From positions 36,595-100,594 of the forward strand of contig MPND01000011.1 of NCBI GenBank assembly GCA_002238855.1: a stretch of 64,000 nt of DNA, in the 5' to 3' direction. Of the stretch, positions 55,099 through 63,999 are shown piece after piece. The DNA comes from SAR202 cluster bacterium bin90 (GTDB lineage: Bacteria; Chloroflexota; Dehalococcoidia; Lucifugimonadales; JADFKI01). Under the pieces are notes generated by a model. It was not told the DNA's origin. It did no database searches and saw nothing but the letters and a program-made list of their open reading frames with translations. The position numbers and the translations under genes are program-made. Each line of letters starts with the position of its first letter. Positions within the stretch are counted from its first letter, which is position 1.

Positions 55099-56124
55099 CT
55101 ACTCAACATACACGCTTTCGAGCAGCTCACTCATCGCCGCCGACAGGAATCTCACGCCCGCGATCGTCCTGATATATTCCATGCGGGTGGGACCCACCAC
55201 TCCTAGCGCGCCGACCGCGCGATGAGGCAACCCGTACTGGCATACTACTACGCTCAGCGGCGACAGCGCATCGTCCGGGTGCTCATGCCCGATGATCACG
55301 CGCACCACGCCGCCCTCCGGCGTCTCCGAAAGGATAGTCTGCGCGAGGCTTCCGTCCTCGACGCCCTCGACAATCGAGCGTGCCCGTTCGTTCTCTGCGA
55401 ACTCCGGCTGCGAGAGCAGGTTGCGCATGCCGTCCACATAGTGGTCGTGGTACGCAGCCTTTTCCTCTTCCTGCAGCACAGTCACAGTTGCTTCAACGAG
55501 TTCCTCTTCCAGTGGCGTGAGTGGCAACTGCTGCGATGCTATCTCACGCTGGTTGTGCCCCATAAGGTACGAGCGCAGCCGAGCGGTAGATTCTTCGAGT
55601 TCATAGGCGTCCATCGGCTGAGGCAGTCGTATGAGCTGGCGATGCAGGCGCGCCTGTTCAAGCACCACAATGAGCATTACCAGGAGGTCCTGCATGGGCA
55701 CCAGGTCGAGGTAACGCACTCTGGTCTCCCGCGATTTCGGGAAGGTAGCAATCGCCATATTGCCCACCAGCCCGGCAAGCACAGCCGCAGATACATTCGC
55801 CCACTCGTCCAGGTTCTGCAGGATGTTCTGCAGCCTTACATGCGCCCTGTCGCGCGCATTCTGCGGAATCGCGCTATCTGTCACAGGCTCGATCGATTCC
55901 ACGAAAAACCTGTACGCCTTGTCCAGGGGAACACTGCCAGCAGACGTGTGCGGATTAGCGAGGTAGCCTTGCTCCTTGAGCACGGCGACATCGTTACGCA
56001 CGGTCGCCGAGCTGACGCTCAGCCCCTGGCTGCGCGCGACGGCGTCCGAAGCGATTGGCGTGGCAGTACGAGTGTAGTCAGCCACGATGATTTTAAGGAT
56101 TAGCTCTTGTCTCTCCGTAAGCAT
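55099..56124 (-). CDS. hrcA: heat-inducible transcription repressor HrcA
   Basis: MLTERQELILKIIVADYTRTATPIASDAVAR...GLSVSSATVRNDVAVLKEQGYLANPHTSAGSVPLDKAYRFFV. Confidence 0.95.
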   Translation of the reverse strand: MLTERQELILKIIVADYTRTATPIASDAVARSQGLSVSSATVRNDVAVLKEQGYLANPHTSAGSVPLDKAYRFFVESIEPVTDSAIPQNARDRAHVRLQNILQNLDEWANVSAAVLAGLVGNMAIATFPKSRETRVRYLDLVPMQDLLVMLIVVLEQARLHRQLIRLPQPMDAYELEESTARLRSYLMGHNQREIASQQLPLTPLEEELVEATVTVLQEEEKAAYHDHYVDGMRNLLSQPEFAENERARSIVEGVEDGSLAQTILSETPEGGVVRVIIGHEHPDDALSPLSVVVCQYGLPHRAVGALGVVGPTRMEYIRTIAGVRFLSAAMSELLESVYVE

Positions 56125-56274
56125 AGCCAACCACGAATTCAAGGCTTTGGAGCGGATAAGATATCCCTATTCTACATTTGCCAATGCAGTCTAACAAGGT
56201 TTCACTTTCAAGAAGCTTGCAGGTGCAGTTCGGCACGACAAAGAGCATCATCAATTGCCCACATCTCCCCTGCT

Positions 56275-59200
56275 CTACAAAGGCCGGCGCAATCCCACCA
56301 GTCCGTCCAAGTAAATCGGTGCATTGGACGCGCCGCCCGGTCCGCCTTCAAGCCCTCCGTGCGATTCCCTGGGATCAAGGAACATACTCGTCTCCGCCTC
56401 GCAGTCCGGCAGGTTAAGCTGCGAGAGGTCATTATTCGCCACATCCTTCAGCCCAACAGGAACACATCCGGTCAGCTGATTGCCTCCAAGGAATAAGAAT
56501 GTCAAATTTTCGAGATTGTCCAGTTCAGACGGTATCTCCCCTGTTAGCTCGTTCCTGGGCAAGTATAGCTGCACAAGTTTGGCGAGGCTGCCCAGTTCAG
56601 ACGGTATCTCTCCGGTCAAACCATTCCTGGAAAGGTACAACTCTGTCAGGTTAGAAAGGCCTCCCAATTCTGTCGGTATCATGCCGGTCAGATCGTTGTC
56701 CGACAAGTGCAGCAACGTCAGACTTGAAAGGCTTCCAAGCTCCGCGGGTATGGCGCCGGAAAGTTGGTTTCTCGACAGATGTAGGTGCCTAAGCTGGACA
56801 AGGCCACCCAACTCAGAAGGAATCGCTCCACTCAGGCTGTTGTCAGAAAGGCGCAGGTATCGCAGTTCCGTGAGATTGCCAATTTCCGCTGGTATTGCAC
56901 CTGTTACACGGTTATTGGTCAGAGACAAGTAAGTCAGTTCCGTCAGCATTCCAAACTCGGCGGGAATCTCACCGGTCAATCGGTTATTTGAAAGGGACAG
57001 ATGATCAAGATTGAGCAGCTGACCTAATTCGGGTGGCATTCCCCCGCTCAACCGATTATCAGACAGCGACAGCCGTTCGAGAGATGTGAGATTACCAAGT
57101 TGCGACGGTATCGCACCGTCCAGTCTGTTCTTGGACAGAGACAGCTCCTCAAGCTCGTAGAGGTCACCCAGTTCTGACGGGATTCCACCGCTCAACCTGT
57201 TATCGGCAAGTGACAGCACCTTGAGTTTCGATAGCCTGCCCAGCTCTACAGGGATTTCGCCATCCAACCTGGAAGGCCCTATCTTTAACTGTGTAACACG
57301 CTTCGGCGAGCCTTCGACCGTAACGCCGTACCATTCGTCAATTGCCACATCGGCTGACCAGTTGAGGATTCCGCCCCTTAGCTTGTCACGGACCGCCAGC
57401 AGCGCATCACAGTCCGTCAGAAGTCCGGGATTGTCGTCCGGATCCTCCACTGCTGTCCCGTTCGAGCACTCTCCCACTTCACAGAAATCCAGCCCAAGCT
57501 CTTCACGGTCATTCGTCATAATATCTTCAAACGCCTTGGGTACGCATCCGCTCAAGTTGTTGCCGGCCAATTTCAGTTCTTCCAGATCGCTCAAGACGCC
57601 CAGCTCAGGGGAGATTTCGCCATTTAACAGGTTGCCGTCAAGCAGCAGCCTCTTCAGGAATGTAAGCTTGCCCAGCTCAGATGGAATCCGTCCCACCAGT
57701 TCATTGTCCGATAACACCAGCACTTCCAGGGCTTCTAGTCTGGCCAGCTCCGCGGGTATCTCGCCGCTCAGTCCCTTGCCCTTCAGTTCGATGTGGGTAG
57801 CGCGCTTGATCGATCCACGGACAGTGACGCCATCCCAATCATCCATCGACAGATGAACAGTCCAGTTCAGGAATGCCCTGCCCGCTAGCTCGTCTCTCAG
57901 TCCCATCAAGGTCTCACAATCCGACACCAAATCCTGATTGCCGTCGGGATCTTCAACTGCTGTTCCACTGGAGCAGTCCACTTCACCGCACAGCGGCAGG
58001 TTCACGAGTGCATCAAGATCATTATCCGTTATGTCATCCAGTCCGTCCGGTATGCAACCGCTGAAAGAGTTGCCGCCGGACAGATTCAATTCGGTCAAGT
58101 TGTCAAGCCTTGTCAGGTCGTGCGGTATCTGGCCACTCAGCTGATTGTCGTTCAGCGACAGCACTTCCAGGATTGAAAGCCTTGCGAGCTCCGACGGAAT
58201 CTCACCGGTCAGAGAATTGTCGGACAGATTCAGCACTTTCAGATACGTCAGGTTTCTCACCTCAGCGGGTATCTCGCCGTCCAGCCCAACGTTGTCAAGA
58301 TTAACCTCTGTTATCCTTCTGGGTGAACCGCTGATCGTGAGTCCTTGCCAATTCTCAATCGCCAGTTCAGTTGTCCAGTTCAGCGCAGCGGCACCCCTCA
58401 GCCCATCCAGACCCGCAAGCAACGAGTTGCAGTCCGAGACCAGCCCATGGTTGGCATTCGGGTTGGTAACTGCCGTTCCGCCCGCGCACTGTCCCTCTCC
58501 ACAGAATTCCAGACCCAGCGAAATCAGGTCATTCCTCTGCACATCCTGCAACTCCTTGGGTATGCAGCCCGTGAATTCATTGCTATGTAGCGACAGAGTT
58601 CTAAGATTTGGGATAGCGCCAAGCTGGGCAGGAATCTCCCCGGTCAACCGGTTCGCCGCAAGAGAAAGTATCTCCAGGTTAGTCAGGCTGCCCAGTTCAA
58701 CCGGAATCGTCCCACGAAGCATATTGCTTTCCAGTGACAGATGTTCAAGTGTGGCAATCGCGCCCAACTGAGACGGAATGGGTCCAGTTAGCCTGTTGCC
58801 ATCTATGGACAGCACCTCCAGGGTCCTGCTCTCACCTAATTCGGGCGGTATCATTCCGCTCAGGTCATTGTCGTCAAGATAAAGGAACCTCAGGTTAGGA
58901 AGACTTCCAAATTCCTTTGGCAATTCCCCGCTCAGTCTATTGTCATCAAGATACAGGGACGATAGATTGCTCAGACTGCTGAGCTCCGGCGGTATCTCTC
59001 CGCTAAGTTGATTTCCGGTCAGCGACATGTGCGACAGGCTCGACAGACCATCCAGTTCGGGCGGTATTTCCCCCGACAGGTCATTATTCGCCAGGACCAT
59101 TAGTTGCAGCCTGCTGAGGCTCCCAAGTTCTGCCGGAATCCCTCCACTAATCTCGTTACCCGTAATCTGCAGCAGCGACAGATGACTCAGCCTGCTCAGT

Positions 59201-61587
59201 TCAGCGGGCAGCCTTCCGCTAAGCCCTCTCTCATTCAGCACCAGATGTATCACACGCTTCGGCGATCCGCCAACCTTCACCCCTTCCCAGTGCTCGATAG
59301 GGACATTCACTGACCAGTTAAGCGACACCCTTCCTCCAAGCCGGCTCCGCGAAGCAATCAGCGCATTGCAGTCCGCCACCAGCCCTGCATTCTCATCAGG
59401 GCTATCGACCGCATTTCCGCTCGTGCATACACCTGACGCGCACGCCTCCAGCCCGGTCTCCGATAGGTCGTTGACCGCCACATCCTCCAGCGCAGGCGGT
59501 ATGCAACCACTAAGAGAGTTGCCAGCAAGCTTCAGTTCTTCCAGACTATCAAGGTCTGCCAGCTCTACGGGAATCTCACCGCTCAGCCGGTTATTCGCAA
59601 GCAGCAGGGACTTCAGTTTCGCCAGGTTCGCCAATTCCGCCGGAATAGCGCCACTCAGCATATTGTCATTGAGCGCAAGGCTCTCCAATTCAGAGAGATC
59701 CCCCAGCTCCACGGGTATATCGCCGGTAAGCAGGTTGTTGTCGAGTGACAGCCTCGTCAGATTGGACAGACCCCCCAGCTCGGCCGGTATAGTCCCTCGT
59801 AGTCTGTTACCGGATAGCGACATAACCTCCAGTCCCGTCAGCGCACCCAGCTCAGCCGGCACACTGCCGGTCAACTCCATCTCATCCAGTTCCAACCCGG
59901 TCACCCGCATTGGCGATCCTGCCATGGTCACTCCATCCCAGTCGCGAATCGCATTGTTCGCACCCCAGTTCAGGGTTGCACTGCCCGCCAGCGCATCCCG
60001 CAAACCCAGCAGCGTCTCGCAGTCCGCCACCAGCCCCTCATTCTCGTTCGGCTCCGCAACCACACTCCCGTCCCTGCACACATCCGCCCCACACACGCTC
60101 AGCCCCGTATCAGCCAGATCATGGTCCGCCACAGATTGCAACGCCAACGGTATGCAACCCACCAGCGAGTTCCCAGACACCTTCAATTCTACAAGATTGG
60201 CAAGGTCACCCAACTCAGTTGGCAGAATGCCACCAATCTGGTTGCCGTTGAGAACTAGCCTTTCGAGTTCAGCCAAGCCGCCAAGTTCCGCCGGTATCTC
60301 CCCGGTCAGCTGATTCCTATCAACTGACAGATCCCTTAGAGCGCCGAGATTGCCCAATTCAGAAGGTAATGCCCCACTCAGATTGTTTCCCGAAAGCGAA
60401 AGAACCTCCATCCCCGTCAGCAGGCCCAACTGAGCCGGCAGACTCCCATCCAGACCCTTCTCATCCAGTGCCAACTCAGTCACCCGCATCGGCGACCCGC
60501 CCACGGTTACTCCATCCCAATCAGCAATCGGTGTGTCTGCCGCCCAGTTCAACACAACGCTCCCCGCCAGCAAATCCCGCAGGCTAAGTAGCGTATCGCA
60601 GTCCGATGTCAATTCCGGATTGTCGCCCGCATCCACCACTGCTCCTCCCGTCGTACAATCCAATGGGGGCTCCGGCAGTCCGGTCACTTTCAGCGTGAAT
60701 TCCCCGCTCTCTTCCACACCATACGTAGTCGCCTCAATCGTATACTCTCCTGCTTCCAGCTCCGTCCCCACAATTTCGGAATTAAAGTCTACACCTGGAA
60801 CCGCGTCGTCATTCTCCGCCACAACCTCGCCGTCTTTCTCCGTTCCTTCCATTAGATACAGGTAGGTATCCACCTCAGACTCCAGCCTGATCCCTACCGT
60901 CGCGGCTTCAGTAATCGTGAAAGCGAAGAAACGCGCATAGTAATCACCTGTCCTGCGATTATTGGGCCTGTTCTCCGAGAGGCACGAGTCGCTCCAGCTC
61001 CTATCAATGTTCACATCCTCACTAATCACTTCAAAGCACGGATCAATTGGGGTCGCACTGGGTGTCGGACTGGCGCTAGCAGTCGGAGACGGTGACGCTA
61101 CATCCTCATCCACATCGATTATCCTCAGTCGCAGCAGTATCTCCGTAGACGCCTCGTCCGCAGCGGACACAACCACACCTATCAGGTAAGTACTCTGAGT
61201 CTCGTAATCTAGTTCCTCACCCTCCTTCAGCACGAGGTGCGCCACATAGTTGCCGCCATCATTAAGGCCTGCGGGAATCAGCGAGAACTTCGCAGTATCG
61301 TCCGACTCCTTGAAGTCGAAAGTCAGCGCTCCGCCATCGGCAGAATACGCCTCAAAAGAAATTATTATGTGGCTCGTTTGCCCTTCAGGCCAGTCCTCGG
61401 GAATCGCCGTCTCCCACACAACCACTGGCCCATCCACAACCTGGGTCGGAGTCGGATCAGTCTGTGCGCTGACCATTCCTGCCCCGGCCCCTCCACCATT
61501 GAACATCAGCACGATGAACAGCACCGCTGCTGCTGCTGCAGCAAACCCCGCCGCCTTCACTCGCCTTGAATCAATTATCGTGTGCAT
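56275..61587 (-). CDS. giant secreted leucine-rich-repeat protein (about 1770 aa), six LRR cassettes, N-terminal TM/signal, PPC-like domain
   Basis: LxGxIPxELGxLxxLxxLxLxxN repeats; six CxxGxAVxxPxxNxxLVxDCxxLLxxRDxLxGxxxLNWxxxxxIxxWxGVxVxGSPxRVT modules ending GC[IV]P. Confidence 0.93.
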   Translation of the reverse strand: MHTIIDSRRVKAAGFAAAAAAVLFIVLMFNGGGAGAGMVSAQTDPTPTQVVDGPVVVWETAIPEDWPEGQTSHIIISFEAYSADGGALTFDFKESDDTAKFSLIPAGLNDGGNYVAHLVLKEGEELDYETQSTYLIGVVVSAADEASTEILLRLRIIDVDEDVASPSPTASASPTPSATPIDPCFEVISEDVNIDRSWSDSCLSENRPNNRRTGDYYARFFAFTITEAATVGIRLESEVDTYLYLMEGTEKDGEVVAENDDAVPGVDFNSEIVGTELEAGEYTIEATTYGVEESGEFTLKVTGLPEPPLDCTTGGAVVDAGDNPELTSDCDTLLSLRDLLAGSVVLNWAADTPIADWDGVTVGGSPMRVTELALDEKGLDGSLPAQLGLLTGMEVLSLSGNNLSGALPSELGNLGALRDLSVDRNQLTGEIPAELGGLAELERLVLNGNQIGGILPTELGDLANLVELKVSGNSLVGCIPLALQSVADHDLADTGLSVCGADVCRDGSVVAEPNENEGLVADCETLLGLRDALAGSATLNWGANNAIRDWDGVTMAGSPMRVTGLELDEMELTGSVPAELGALTGLEVMSLSGNRLRGTIPAELGGLSNLTRLSLDNNLLTGDIPVELGDLSELESLALNDNMLSGAIPAELANLAKLKSLLLANNRLSGEIPVELADLDSLEELKLAGNSLSGCIPPALEDVAVNDLSETGLEACASGVCTSGNAVDSPDENAGLVADCNALIASRSRLGGRVSLNWSVNVPIEHWEGVKVGGSPKRVIHLVLNERGLSGRLPAELSRLSHLSLLQITGNEISGGIPAELGSLSRLQLMVLANNDLSGEIPPELDGLSSLSHMSLTGNQLSGEIPPELSSLSNLSSLYLDDNRLSGELPKEFGSLPNLRFLYLDDNDLSGMIPPELGESRTLEVLSIDGNRLTGPIPSQLGAIATLEHLSLESNMLRGTIPVELGSLTNLEILSLAANRLTGEIPAQLGAIPNLRTLSLHSNEFTGCIPKELQDVQRNDLISLGLEFCGEGQCAGGTAVTNPNANHGLVSDCNSLLAGLDGLRGAAALNWTTELAIENWQGLTISGSPRRITEVNLDNVGLDGEIPAEVRNLTYLKVLNLSDNSLTGEIPSELARLSILEVLSLNDNQLSGQIPHDLTRLDNLTELNLSGGNSFSGCIPDGLDDITDNDLDALVNLPLCGEVDCSSGTAVEDPDGNQDLVSDCETLMGLRDELAGRAFLNWTVHLSMDDWDGVTVRGSIKRATHIELKGKGLSGEIPAELARLEALEVLVLSDNELVGRIPSELGKLTFLKRLLLDGNLLNGEISPELGVLSDLEELKLAGNNLSGCVPKAFEDIMTNDREELGLDFCEVGECSNGTAVEDPDDNPGLLTDCDALLAVRDKLRGGILNWSADVAIDEWYGVTVEGSPKRVTQLKIGPSRLDGEIPVELGRLSKLKVLSLADNRLSGGIPSELGDLYELEELSLSKNRLDGAIPSQLGNLTSLERLSLSDNRLSGGMPPELGQLLNLDHLSLSNNRLTGEIPAEFGMLTELTYLSLTNNRVTGAIPAEIGNLTELRYLRLSDNSLSGAIPSELGGLVQLRHLHLSRNQLSGAIPAELGSLSSLTLLHLSDNDLTGMIPTELGGLSNLTELYLSRNGLTGEIPSELGSLAKLVQLYLPRNELTGEIPSELDNLENLTFLFLGGNQLTGCVPVGLKDVANNDLSQLNLPDCEAETSMFLDPRESHGGLEGGPGGASNAPIYLDGLVGLRRPL

Positions 61588-61768
61588 ACTAGGCAATTCA
61601 TCTCCCACCGGCATCCAGTCAACACCCCACAGGCGCTCCCTGACCATCCCAATATATTACTGCGTAAATACATTAGTCCCCTTCAGCATCCCCAGTCAAT
61701 GCCTCGCAGCGCAATTGCCGCACACTTCTGCCCGCATTCACAAGCCCCACACGCGCACGTGCCACAAA

Positions 61769-61884: not shown

Positions 61885-62991
61885 CTATTCACGCCGTCTC
61901 CGCCCACGCATATACTTCGCGCCCCCCAGCATCACCAGAGGTGCGAACAACACCAGCATATTCGCAGCGGATTGCTCGAACGGCAGTCCCGATGTGCTGG
62001 AGCAGATGCCACCGCCATCCTCTTCATCCTCTTCGCCAGCAGTCTCCACCACAACAGGCACCGGCGTCGCGGTTGGAGGAATCGGAGTAGCAGTAGGCTC
62101 AGGCGTGGCAGTCGGCTCGGGTGTAGCAGTCGGCTCAGGCGTAGCAGTCGGAGGAACCGGCGTATAGGTGGGAACCGGCGTGTAGGTCGGCTGCGGTGTG
62201 TAAGTCGGCACCGGTGTCGGCGGAACTGCAGTTGCAGTCGGCACCGGCGTCTCAGTCGGCACACGCGTCGCCGTCGGCGGAACATCGCCGAACACAAGGT
62301 CCACCACCTGCCGCGCACCCGGCTCGAACACCCCAATGGCGGGTGGCGTCGAAGCCTCTCCGTTCAGGAAGAACTCCACAGGAGCCCCTATCAAGTCTGC
62401 ATCGTCCGTGAGTATCACCAGGTTGACGAATTCCCCGTTATTCAGGATCGCCGCAGGCGGGCTCTCGTAGTCTCCCACCCTGATTATTAGCCTCATCTCC
62501 GGAGTCACGGCAAGCCCCGCGACCACGATCGTTCCGGAATAGGTCGCCGGGAGCACCGGCACAGGCGTCGGTGTAAGCGTTGCTTCAGGTATCTCATCGA
62601 ATGTCAGATCAAAATTGAACTGGTTCACGCCAGGTTGGTGCCGAAGCGTTTCGTTCGCCTCCGCGCCCTCCAACAGGAACACAATCTCCTCGCCGATGAA
62701 TCTGGAGTCCGGCGGACCTACCGTCAGAAAATAAACGCCGTCCTCGACCTCTGCAGGCTGAGTTTCATAAACGGCGGCCCCTTTGGTCATCCTCGCCACC
62801 ACCTTGAAGCCATTAGGCGCTCCAATTGCATCGCCCGTCACGATCATCGGAATCTGTGGAATGCTTTGAGGAGCCGCGGCCGGAGTAGGTGTATCTGTCT
62901 GCGCCAATGTTCCACCGCTCGGCAGCACCAGCAGCCCCACAAGTAAAACGACTACCGCCAACAAACCCGCAACTACACTTTTAATTCTCAT
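61885..62991 (-). CDS. secreted surface protein, two beta-type repeats, PT/PE-rich stalk, C-terminal Cys + TM + Arg cluster
   Basis: Signal peptide VVAGLLAVVVLLVGLLVLPSGGTLAQ; (T/P)-rich linker; C-term GGGICSSTSGLPFEQSAANMLVLFAPLVMLGGAKYMRGRRRRE. Confidence 0.85.
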   Translation of the reverse strand: MRIKSVVAGLLAVVVLLVGLLVLPSGGTLAQTDTPTPAAAPQSIPQIPMIVTGDAIGAPNGFKVVARMTKGAAVYETQPAEVEDGVYFLTVGPPDSRFIGEEIVFLLEGAEANETLRHQPGVNQFNFDLTFDEIPEATLTPTPVPVLPATYSGTIVVAGLAVTPEMRLIIRVGDYESPPAAILNNGEFVNLVILTDDADLIGAPVEFFLNGEASTPPAIGVFEPGARQVVDLVFGDVPPTATRVPTETPVPTATAVPPTPVPTYTPQPTYTPVPTYTPVPPTATPEPTATPEPTATPEPTATPIPPTATPVPVVVETAGEEDEEDGGGICSSTSGLPFEQSAANMLVLFAPLVMLGGAKYMRGRRRRE

Positions 62992-63448
62992 AGCCCCCAT
63001 CTCTGCCAGCTGCACACCGATCGGTGCGATTCAATACCCTGCATCGTTTGAACACACTGTCAAACACATCCTTACTATTATAGACCCACCACACCACTCC
63101 GTCTATAAAATCCGGCCCTCTAAGAGATGGCACCATCGTTGCCGACCAGTTCCTCCAAACCACAAGACTGAAGCCACGACCATGACCGTGCGAAGCTAGG
63201 AAAAAGGGCAAAGGGATTCCTACACTACCAAAACCCCTCCAGCTTAAACATATAACGCCCAGCCAGGCAAAAGGTTCCATCCCCTTCGCCCGGAATAGAA
63301 CACCCCACCCAAAATACTGTCAATCGACTCCGTCAGCGATGCCAAAAGATTCAACCACCTAAAATAATCACGATTCTCCACAACGCCGCTCATCAGTCCA
63401 ACCAGAACACACTACTGAACCAGACACAACTCCGGACACAAAAAGAAA

Positions 63449-63579: not shown

Positions 63580-63999
63580 CTAGTCACTCCCGCCGCCACT
63601 GACGTATCCGCTAGGTACGAGGCTGGCTGCCTCCCTGACGAATATCCAGTATGCGGAACCGACCGTCAGCGTGTTGTTCATCTGCATATCCGGATCCAGT
63701 ACCGTCTCCCACTGGTTTCTAATGGTGTCGAATCCGAGCACCCTAGCCAGGTCCAGACCGTCGTCCAGGTTCTGCAGGTAAACTTCCGCGCTCACCGTGT
63801 CACCGCCGCCAGCGTTTCCGCTAATGTCGGTAACCGGGATCAGGTTCCAGCCGGCGTACAGCGCGATCACAGGCGGCTGTATCGGGGTGCCGGTTCCGGC
63901 AGCTCCACCGGCCAGTCTCGGGATGCTAACTTCCCAATCCTGGATGGCATCGCTGAGTACCCAGTATCCGCGCGTACCCGTAATCTCTGTCAGGTCGCC
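63580..63999 (-). CDS. C-terminal part of a secreted/surface protein, 5' truncated by window edge
   Basis: Frame open to window end: GDLTEITGTRGYWVLSDAIQDWEVSIPRLAGGAAGTGTPIQPPVIALYAGWNLIPVTDISG...GSAYWIFVREAASLVP. Confidence 0.75.
   Translation of the reverse strand, partial: GDLTEITGTRGYWVLSDAIQDWEVSIPRLAGGAAGTGTPIQPPVIALYAGWNLIPVTDISGNAGGGDTVSAEVYLQNLDDGLDLARVLGFDTIRNQWETVLDPDMQMNNTLTVGSAYWIFVREAASLVPSGYVSGGGSD

What the first reader, a model, noticed from the sequence alone, without database searches (positions are those of the whole stretch)
56275..61587. Giant plant-like LRR protein built from six Cys-bounded cassettes with variable LRR number
After an N-terminal TM/signal and a PPC-like domain, six modules each start with C..G.AV..P..N..LVSDC..LL..RD.L.G...LNW....I..W.GV.V.GSP.RVT and end in a GC[IV]P cap. 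By eye, cassettes carry about 4, 5, 9, 3, 3 and 11 LRRs. The LxGxIPxELGxLxxL consensus is the plant-specific LRR type. Variable repeat number between identical caps implies ongoing expansion/contraction and fits a surface recognition or adhesion role.
Basis: partly seen in the sequence, partly recalled or inferred. Interest (0 to 1): 0.65.

Follow-up and report, generated by a model that had tools for sequence, protein, structure and literature searches.

The report
Bacterial six-module plant-type LRR protein
A bacterium of a mostly sponge-associated protein family makes a giant secreted protein of six separately capped leucine-rich-repeat domains resembling plant receptor ectodomains; its repeat counts are old and stable in this gene, but the exposed repeat surface changes fast in its closest relatives, as expected of a binding protein.

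Summary
One open ORF (56275-61587, minus strand) encodes a signal peptide, a cadherin-like domain, a PPC-type domain and six cassettes. Each cassette has a Cys-bounded N-cap, then 5, 6, 10, 4, 4 and 12 plant-type 24-residue LRRs, then a GC[IV]P C-cap. All 24 cassette cysteines follow one rule: 19 apart in N-caps, 21-22 apart in C-caps. AlphaFold2 models two neighbouring cassettes as separate capped LRR domains; sequence and fold searches return plant LRR receptor ectodomains.

The "ongoing expansion" reading fails for this gene: silent sites between repeats are saturated, the longest exact repeat is 19 bp, and caps are 41-55% identical. Orthologue pairs at 63-90% identity keep their counts. 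It holds for some relatives: one Caldilineaceae protein has eight cassettes, seven with heads 86-99% identical in DNA.

In two congeners the syntenic gene has three cassettes; a third has none there. Between those two, LRR surface dN/dS is about 1, LRR core 0.15, HrcA 0.02. Relatives come mostly from sponge MAGs. Best reading: a secreted multi-domain ligand-binding protein, a new variant of sponge-symbiont LRR "eukaryotic-like proteins".

The parts
61465..61587 (-). signal peptide, aa 21-61 (MHTIIDSRRVKAAG...VLFIVLMF...VSA|QTD); the only hydrophobic stretch of the protein
   Evidence: Kyte-Doolittle maximum 2.2 at aa 30, no other segment above 1.6; start supported by homologues
61102..61434 (-). 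cadherin-like beta-sandwich domain, aa about 72-182
   Evidence: AF2 model; Foldseek matches to protocadherin EC domains; 50% identical to the syntenic congeneric genes
60667..61038 (-). PPC-type domain, aa about 204-327
   Evidence: Pfam PF04151 matched by all 14 members of A4, best E 7.7e-10; Foldseek to collagenase PPC/collagen-binding domains, TM 0.77 on the target; 45 copies in the genome
60091..60657 (-). cassette 1: N-cap (C331/C350), 5 LRRs, C-cap (C498/C519)
59440..60078 (-). cassette 2: N-cap (C524/C543), 6 LRRs, C-cap (C715/C736)
58501..59427 (-). cassette 3: N-cap (C741/C760), 10 LRRs, C-cap (C1028/C1049); likely orthologous to cassette 2 of G001/G002
57988..58488 (-). cassette 4: N-cap (C1054/C1073), 4 LRRs, C-cap (C1198/C1220)
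57481..57975 (-). cassette 5: N-cap (C1225/C1244), 4 LRRs, C-cap (C1368/C1389)
56401..57468 (-). cassette 6: N-cap (C1394/C1413), 12 LRRs, C-cap (C1728/C1749)
56275..56400 (-). C-terminal tail, no transmembrane segment or recognisable anchor
55099..56142 (-). hrcA, the next gene downstream on the same strand; synteny anchor
   Evidence: TIGR00331 255.6 bits over cutoff 197.2; congeneric orthologues
61885..63015 (-). upstream secreted Pro/Thr-rich stalk-like protein with C-terminal TM and RRRR tail, conserved beside this locus in G002 and G004
63580..63999 (-). C-terminal end of a large secreted protein; its counterparts at this position in G002/G004 carry Pfam cadherin domains

Best explanation
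The gene encodes an exported protein of six independently folding, separately capped plant-type LRR domains in tandem behind two small beta-sandwich domains (cadherin-like and PPC). Each cassette is closed by a probable disulfide-bonded N-cap, a divergent LRRNT_2-like fold, and a disulfide-bonded C-cap, so it can act as its own concave binding surface and the whole protein as a multivalent binder. It most likely acts outside the cell as an adhesin or recognition protein, binding host (probably sponge) or neighbouring-cell proteins or glycans. The gene family evolves by duplication, loss and exchange of whole cassettes and of LRR units; in this gene those events are old. Shown: architecture, cysteine rule, synteny, saturation of silent sites, surface-versus-core selection contrast in congeners. 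Inferred: export route, disulfides, ligand binding, sponge host.
For: Signal peptide and no other TM. All 26 Cys accounted for: 2 in PPC and 4 per cassette at spacing 19 (N-cap) and 21-22 (C-cap). AF2 of cassettes 4+5 at pLDDT 91 shows two LRR domains each opened by its own helix. Plant receptor ectodomains are the top sequence and fold matches. LRR surface dN/dS 1.02 (0.69-1.72) against core 0.15, heads 0.40, HrcA 0.02 and Ffh 0.05 between two congeneric orthologues at similar dS. Neighbours are secreted cadherin-bearing and stalk-like proteins. 53 of 74 related named loci carry bin names of published sponge-MAG sets (hosts in PMC8163846, PMC9531527), and LRR and cadherin genes are reported as enriched in sponge symbionts there.
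Against: No ligand, expression or localisation data. No anchor on the LRR protein itself, so it may be released rather than surface-held. The source of this genome is not given; a sponge host is inferred from relatives. Surface dN/dS near 1 can also mean relaxed constraint. In one related single-cassette group (21 LRRs) the concave face is strongly conserved (dN/dS 0.06-0.14), so rapid change is not general to the family.
Confidence: 0.6

Rival explanations
1. Anti-phagocytic or immune-modulating mimic: the secreted LRR array engages host recognition proteins so that sponge amoebocytes do not digest the symbiont, as proposed for ankyrin ELPs.
For: Reported for other eukaryote-like repeat proteins of sponge symbionts (PMC6306507 and PMC8163846); fast LRR surface evolution; about 20 LRR loci and 14 ankyrin matches in the genome.
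Against: The functional test named in those passages is for ankyrin proteins, not LRR; nothing here separates binding for adhesion from binding for evasion.
Confidence: 0.2
2. Structural protein of the bacterial surface or biofilm matrix: the arrays serve as spacers or cell-cell glue among bacteria and do not recognise a host.
For: Cadherin-like and stalk-like neighbours; PPC-type domains widely attached in this genus (45 copies).
Against: A spacer would not need LRR surface positions to have a dN/dS about seven times that of its core positions, although some contrast is normal for any folded protein; counts are stable where a spacer could vary freely.
Confidence: 0.15
3. Contingency repeat gene: repeat number changes on short time scales to vary the surface.
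For: Unequal counts between cassettes; recent expansions in relatives L043, L057, L093/L098/L106.
Against: Saturated silent sites and no near-identical repeats in this gene; equal counts between G001 and G002 and in other orthologue groups.
Confidence: 0.04
4. Assembly artefact (collapsed or chimeric repeat).
For: Draft genome of 213 contigs, 6.3% contamination.
Against: Longest exact repeat 19 bp; open frame throughout; syntenic three-cassette orthologue on a 252-kb contig; long single-chromosome relatives show the same architecture.
Confidence: 0.01

Closest known systems
LRR-type eukaryotic-like proteins (ELPs) of sponge symbionts (Chloroflexota Caldilineae and SAR202; PMC6306507, PMC8163846, PMC9531527)
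   Same: Same broad taxon, LRR proteins in high number, many relatives in MAGs from Ircinia, Aplysina, Coscinoderma and Rhopaloeides (bin names).
   Different: Those papers count LRR domains; in the passages read no tandem capped-cassette architecture, cap motif or repeat-number evolution is described.
Plant LRR receptor kinase ectodomains (GSO1, MIK2, FLS2, TMK3; Pfam LRR_1/LRR_8, LRRNT_2)
   Same: 24-aa LxxLxLxxNxLxGxIPxxLGxLxx repeats; head profile and plant LRRNT_2 align at W..GV...G..RVT.L.L (TMK3 E 0.003; best LRRNT_2 E 0.0013).
   Different: No transmembrane segment or kinase; N-cap Cys pair 19 apart instead of the plant C.W.GV.C pair (plant pattern from general knowledge); six LRR blocks instead of one or two.
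Slit and TMK-type proteins with several LRR blocks (from general knowledge; a two-solenoid LRR structure, 4hq1, appears)
   Same: Several LRR blocks separated by non-LRR caps in one extracellular protein.
   Different: Eukaryotic, fixed low block number; here 1-17 cassettes per protein across the family.
Lamprey variable lymphocyte receptors (from general knowledge)
   Same: LRR arrays of variable length between Cys caps.
   Different: No somatic assembly evidence; variation here is evolutionary, and in this gene old.

Membership tests
Plant-specific (PS) LRR class | 24-residue LxxLxLxxNxL(t/s)GxIPxxLGxLxx repeat | tested here: met
   41 units, 34 of 35 intra-cassette spacings exactly 24; LRR_1 306 bits; plant ectodomains top the PDB matches
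Pfam LRRNT_2 (PF08263) N-cap | score over the curated cutoff | tested here: not met
   window head 1: 14.9 bits against 20.7; 15 of 49 heads at E<=1, best 0.0013
Pfam LRRNT_2 (PF08263) N-cap | plant Cys pair in C.W.GV.C | tested here: not met
   heads read W.GV.V; their two Cys are 19 apart and upstream of that motif
Pfam PPC (PF04151) | PPC fold and profile | tested here: inconclusive
   window copy just below cutoff (23.9 of 25.9) but all 14 relatives match, best E 7.7e-10; Foldseek TM 0.77 on collagenase PPC
Sponge-symbiont ELP | eukaryote-like repeat protein | tested here: met
Sponge-symbiont ELP | genome from a sponge | not testable with these tools
   source of G000 withheld; the nearest of ten named genomes tested (Ffh 69-71%) carry sponge-bin names
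Sponge-symbiont ELP | acts on host cells | not testable with these tools
   no functional data
Contingency (phase-variable) repeat gene | near-identical tandem repeats | tested here: not met
Plant LRR receptor kinase | single-pass TM plus kinase after the LRRs | tested here: not met
   no TM after the signal peptide, no kinase match

The most novel reading that the evidence does not exclude
Marine Chloroflexota and other co-resident phyla hold an expandable repertoire of Cys-capped, plant-type LRR cassettes that are duplicated and shuffled within and between genes (1-17 per protein, tandem gene arrays, near-identical caps with 3-13 LRRs in L043), a prokaryotic modular recognition system in which domain number and surface residues are the diversified traits.
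Probability: 0.2. Interest if true: 0.75.

Novelty: new variant of a known kind. Interest (0 to 1): 0.47.

Why it matters
LRR eukaryotic-like proteins are repeatedly counted in sponge-symbiont genomes, but the passages read here do not describe how they are built. Here they resolve into a definable unit (N-cap, n LRRs, C-cap, four cysteines at fixed spacing) that can be counted, aligned between orthologues and expressed alone. That makes the question of what these proteins bind testable cassette by cassette. It also supplies a possible bacterial relative of the plant receptor N-cap, which bears on where that cap came from.

Tried and rejected
Cassette or repeat collapse in assembly: rejected, longest exact repeat 19 bp. 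Recent expansion of this gene: rejected on silent sites. Phage-borne spread: no relative in viral contigs. NCBIfam hits to XopAC/XopAE/internalin families: rejected as LRR cross-matches far below cutoffs. Transfer between phyla: the head tree (65 columns) is too poorly resolved to decide. Source cassette of c2 and c4-c6: similarity points to win1/win2/win5 kinship, but c4 and c6 remain unresolved.

Full report
What is there. The minus-strand ORF 56275-61647 (1790 codons) is open throughout. After the signal peptide come a cadherin-like beta-sandwich (AF2; Foldseek protocadherins), a Thr/Pro linker, a PPC-type domain (Pfam PF04151 in all 14 relatives; Foldseek to collagenase PPC and collagen-binding domains), and six cassettes.

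The cassette is a real module. Every one of the 24 cysteines outside the PPC domain obeys one rule: in each cassette two Cys 19 residues apart in the head and two Cys 21 (once 22) apart starting at the GC[IV]P cap. AF2 of cassettes 4+5 (pLDDT 91.3) gives two separately capped LRR domains, each opened by a helix of about 17 residues; the low pTM (0.58) leaves their mutual orientation open. Disulfides are inferred from spacing and export, not observed.

Plant likeness. Whole-protein phmmer against the PDB lists plant receptor ectodomains first (GSO1 507 bits), the first bacterial protein (Leptospira LIC11098) at 178 bits. Foldseek agrees. The head itself, without LRRs, finds only plant TMK3 plausibly (E 0.003), and LRRNT_2 is the only Pfam family matched by more than one head (15 of 49, best E 0.0013, below cutoff for the window head). 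So the head is LRRNT_2-like, but on score and Cys pattern it is not filed as a member.

Is the repeat number changing now? Not in this gene. Tandem Repeats Finder finds no array in it. Mean DNA identity of LRR units is 0.50, maximum 0.75. At identical residues the codons agree in 0.350 of cases against 0.345 expected from codon usage, so silent sites are saturated. Heads of cassettes 1-5 are 41-55% identical, and the largest excess of shared codons is between cassettes 1-2 and 2-3 (0.52 and 0.55 against 0.36-0.37). Orthologue pairs at 63-90% aa identity keep their counts: six proteins with 21 LRRs each, a 24-LRR pair, a 17-cassette pair of 59 LRRs at 79% identity, and the 7/9 cassettes of G001/G002.

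It does change in relatives and over longer times. L043 (Caldilineaceae chromosome OY282381.1) has eight cassettes with 3, 5, 9, 7, 7, 3, 13, 7 LRRs; heads 2-8 are 86-99% identical in DNA, codon identity is 0.81 against 0.365, and an exact repeat of 345 bp is present. OY282385.1 carries a one-strand array of about 16 LRR genes over some 46 kb with similar signs. At the window's own locus, found by synteny with hrcA, G002 has 7, 9, 3 LRRs in three cassettes, and G001 shows the same layout, although its third cassette lies on another contig. G004 has no LRR gene between the stalk-like gene and hrcA on a 914-kb contig. G003 is broken at that point. Window cassette 1 matches congeneric cassette 1 and cassette 3 matches congeneric cassette 2 (modest support).

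Selection. Between G001 and G002, at similar dS (about 0.2-0.3), LRR surface positions have dN/dS 1.02 (bootstrap 0.69-1.72), LRR core 0.15 (0.06-0.29), heads 0.40, non-LRR 0.32, HrcA 0.02, Ffh 0.05. The fold is kept while the exposed face drifts or diversifies. The 17-cassette pair shows the same trend (concave 0.68, core 0.09), but the 21-LRR Caldilineaceae group has a conserved concave face (0.06-0.14). This is the main argument here for a binding role; it rests on one congeneric pair and does not exceed 1 significantly.

Setting. 24 of 294 genomes of the class have the head, and none was found in viral contigs. Of 74 named loci, 53 carry bin names of sets whose hosts are demosponges (IRC, APA, COS, RHO, SB066x, jk18x and others, with PMC8163846 and PMC9531527; assignment by bin prefix is my inference), 18 are from OY/OX/CAT records of unverified source, and 3 are other. 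The database is rich in sponge MAGs of these clades, so this is not a measured enrichment. The PPC subtype is multiplied in this genus (45 copies in G000, 17 in G002, 10 in G004, few elsewhere in the order) and is joined to many of the LRR proteins at N-terminal, internal or C-terminal positions.

Conclusion. Its most likely role is extracellular, multivalent binding; the host link and the ligand are inferred. It is a new architectural variant of a known kind (LRR eukaryotic-like proteins), and the expansion claim belongs to relatives, not to this gene.

Noticed in passing
L093, L098, L106 (OY282385.1, 639-686 kb): One-strand tandem array of about 16 LRR-cassette genes in a Dehalococcoidia chromosome, with recent repeat duplication (codon identity 0.70-0.72 against 0.43-0.45 expected).
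   Followed up: partly
L043:6867-13697: Eight-cassette Caldilineaceae protein, heads 2-8 86-99% identical in DNA but 3-13 LRRs per cassette: apparently active cassette shuffling.
   Followed up: partly
L065:2400-12644 and L067:1800-12128: 17-cassette, 3.4-kaa LRR proteins in two Pseudomonadales chromosomes, 59 LRRs in both at 79% identity.
   Followed up: partly
L057:1755-7385: Single head followed by about 72 LRRs, with an exact internal repeat of at least 399 bp.
   Followed up: no
window 60667-61038 and 44 further places in G000: A PPC-type domain subtype multiplied in this genus (45 copies in the genome) and joined to LRR proteins at N-terminal, internal or C-terminal positions.
   Followed up: partly
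window 61885-63015: Pro/Thr-rich stalk-like protein ending in a conserved TM plus RRRR tail, no Pfam or NCBIfam match; possibly a surface anchor conserved at this site in G002 and G004.
   Followed up: partly
L162:2-328: Transposase-like fragment at the contig end upstream of hrcA in G003, where congeners carry the LRR gene (judged by eye).
   Followed up: no
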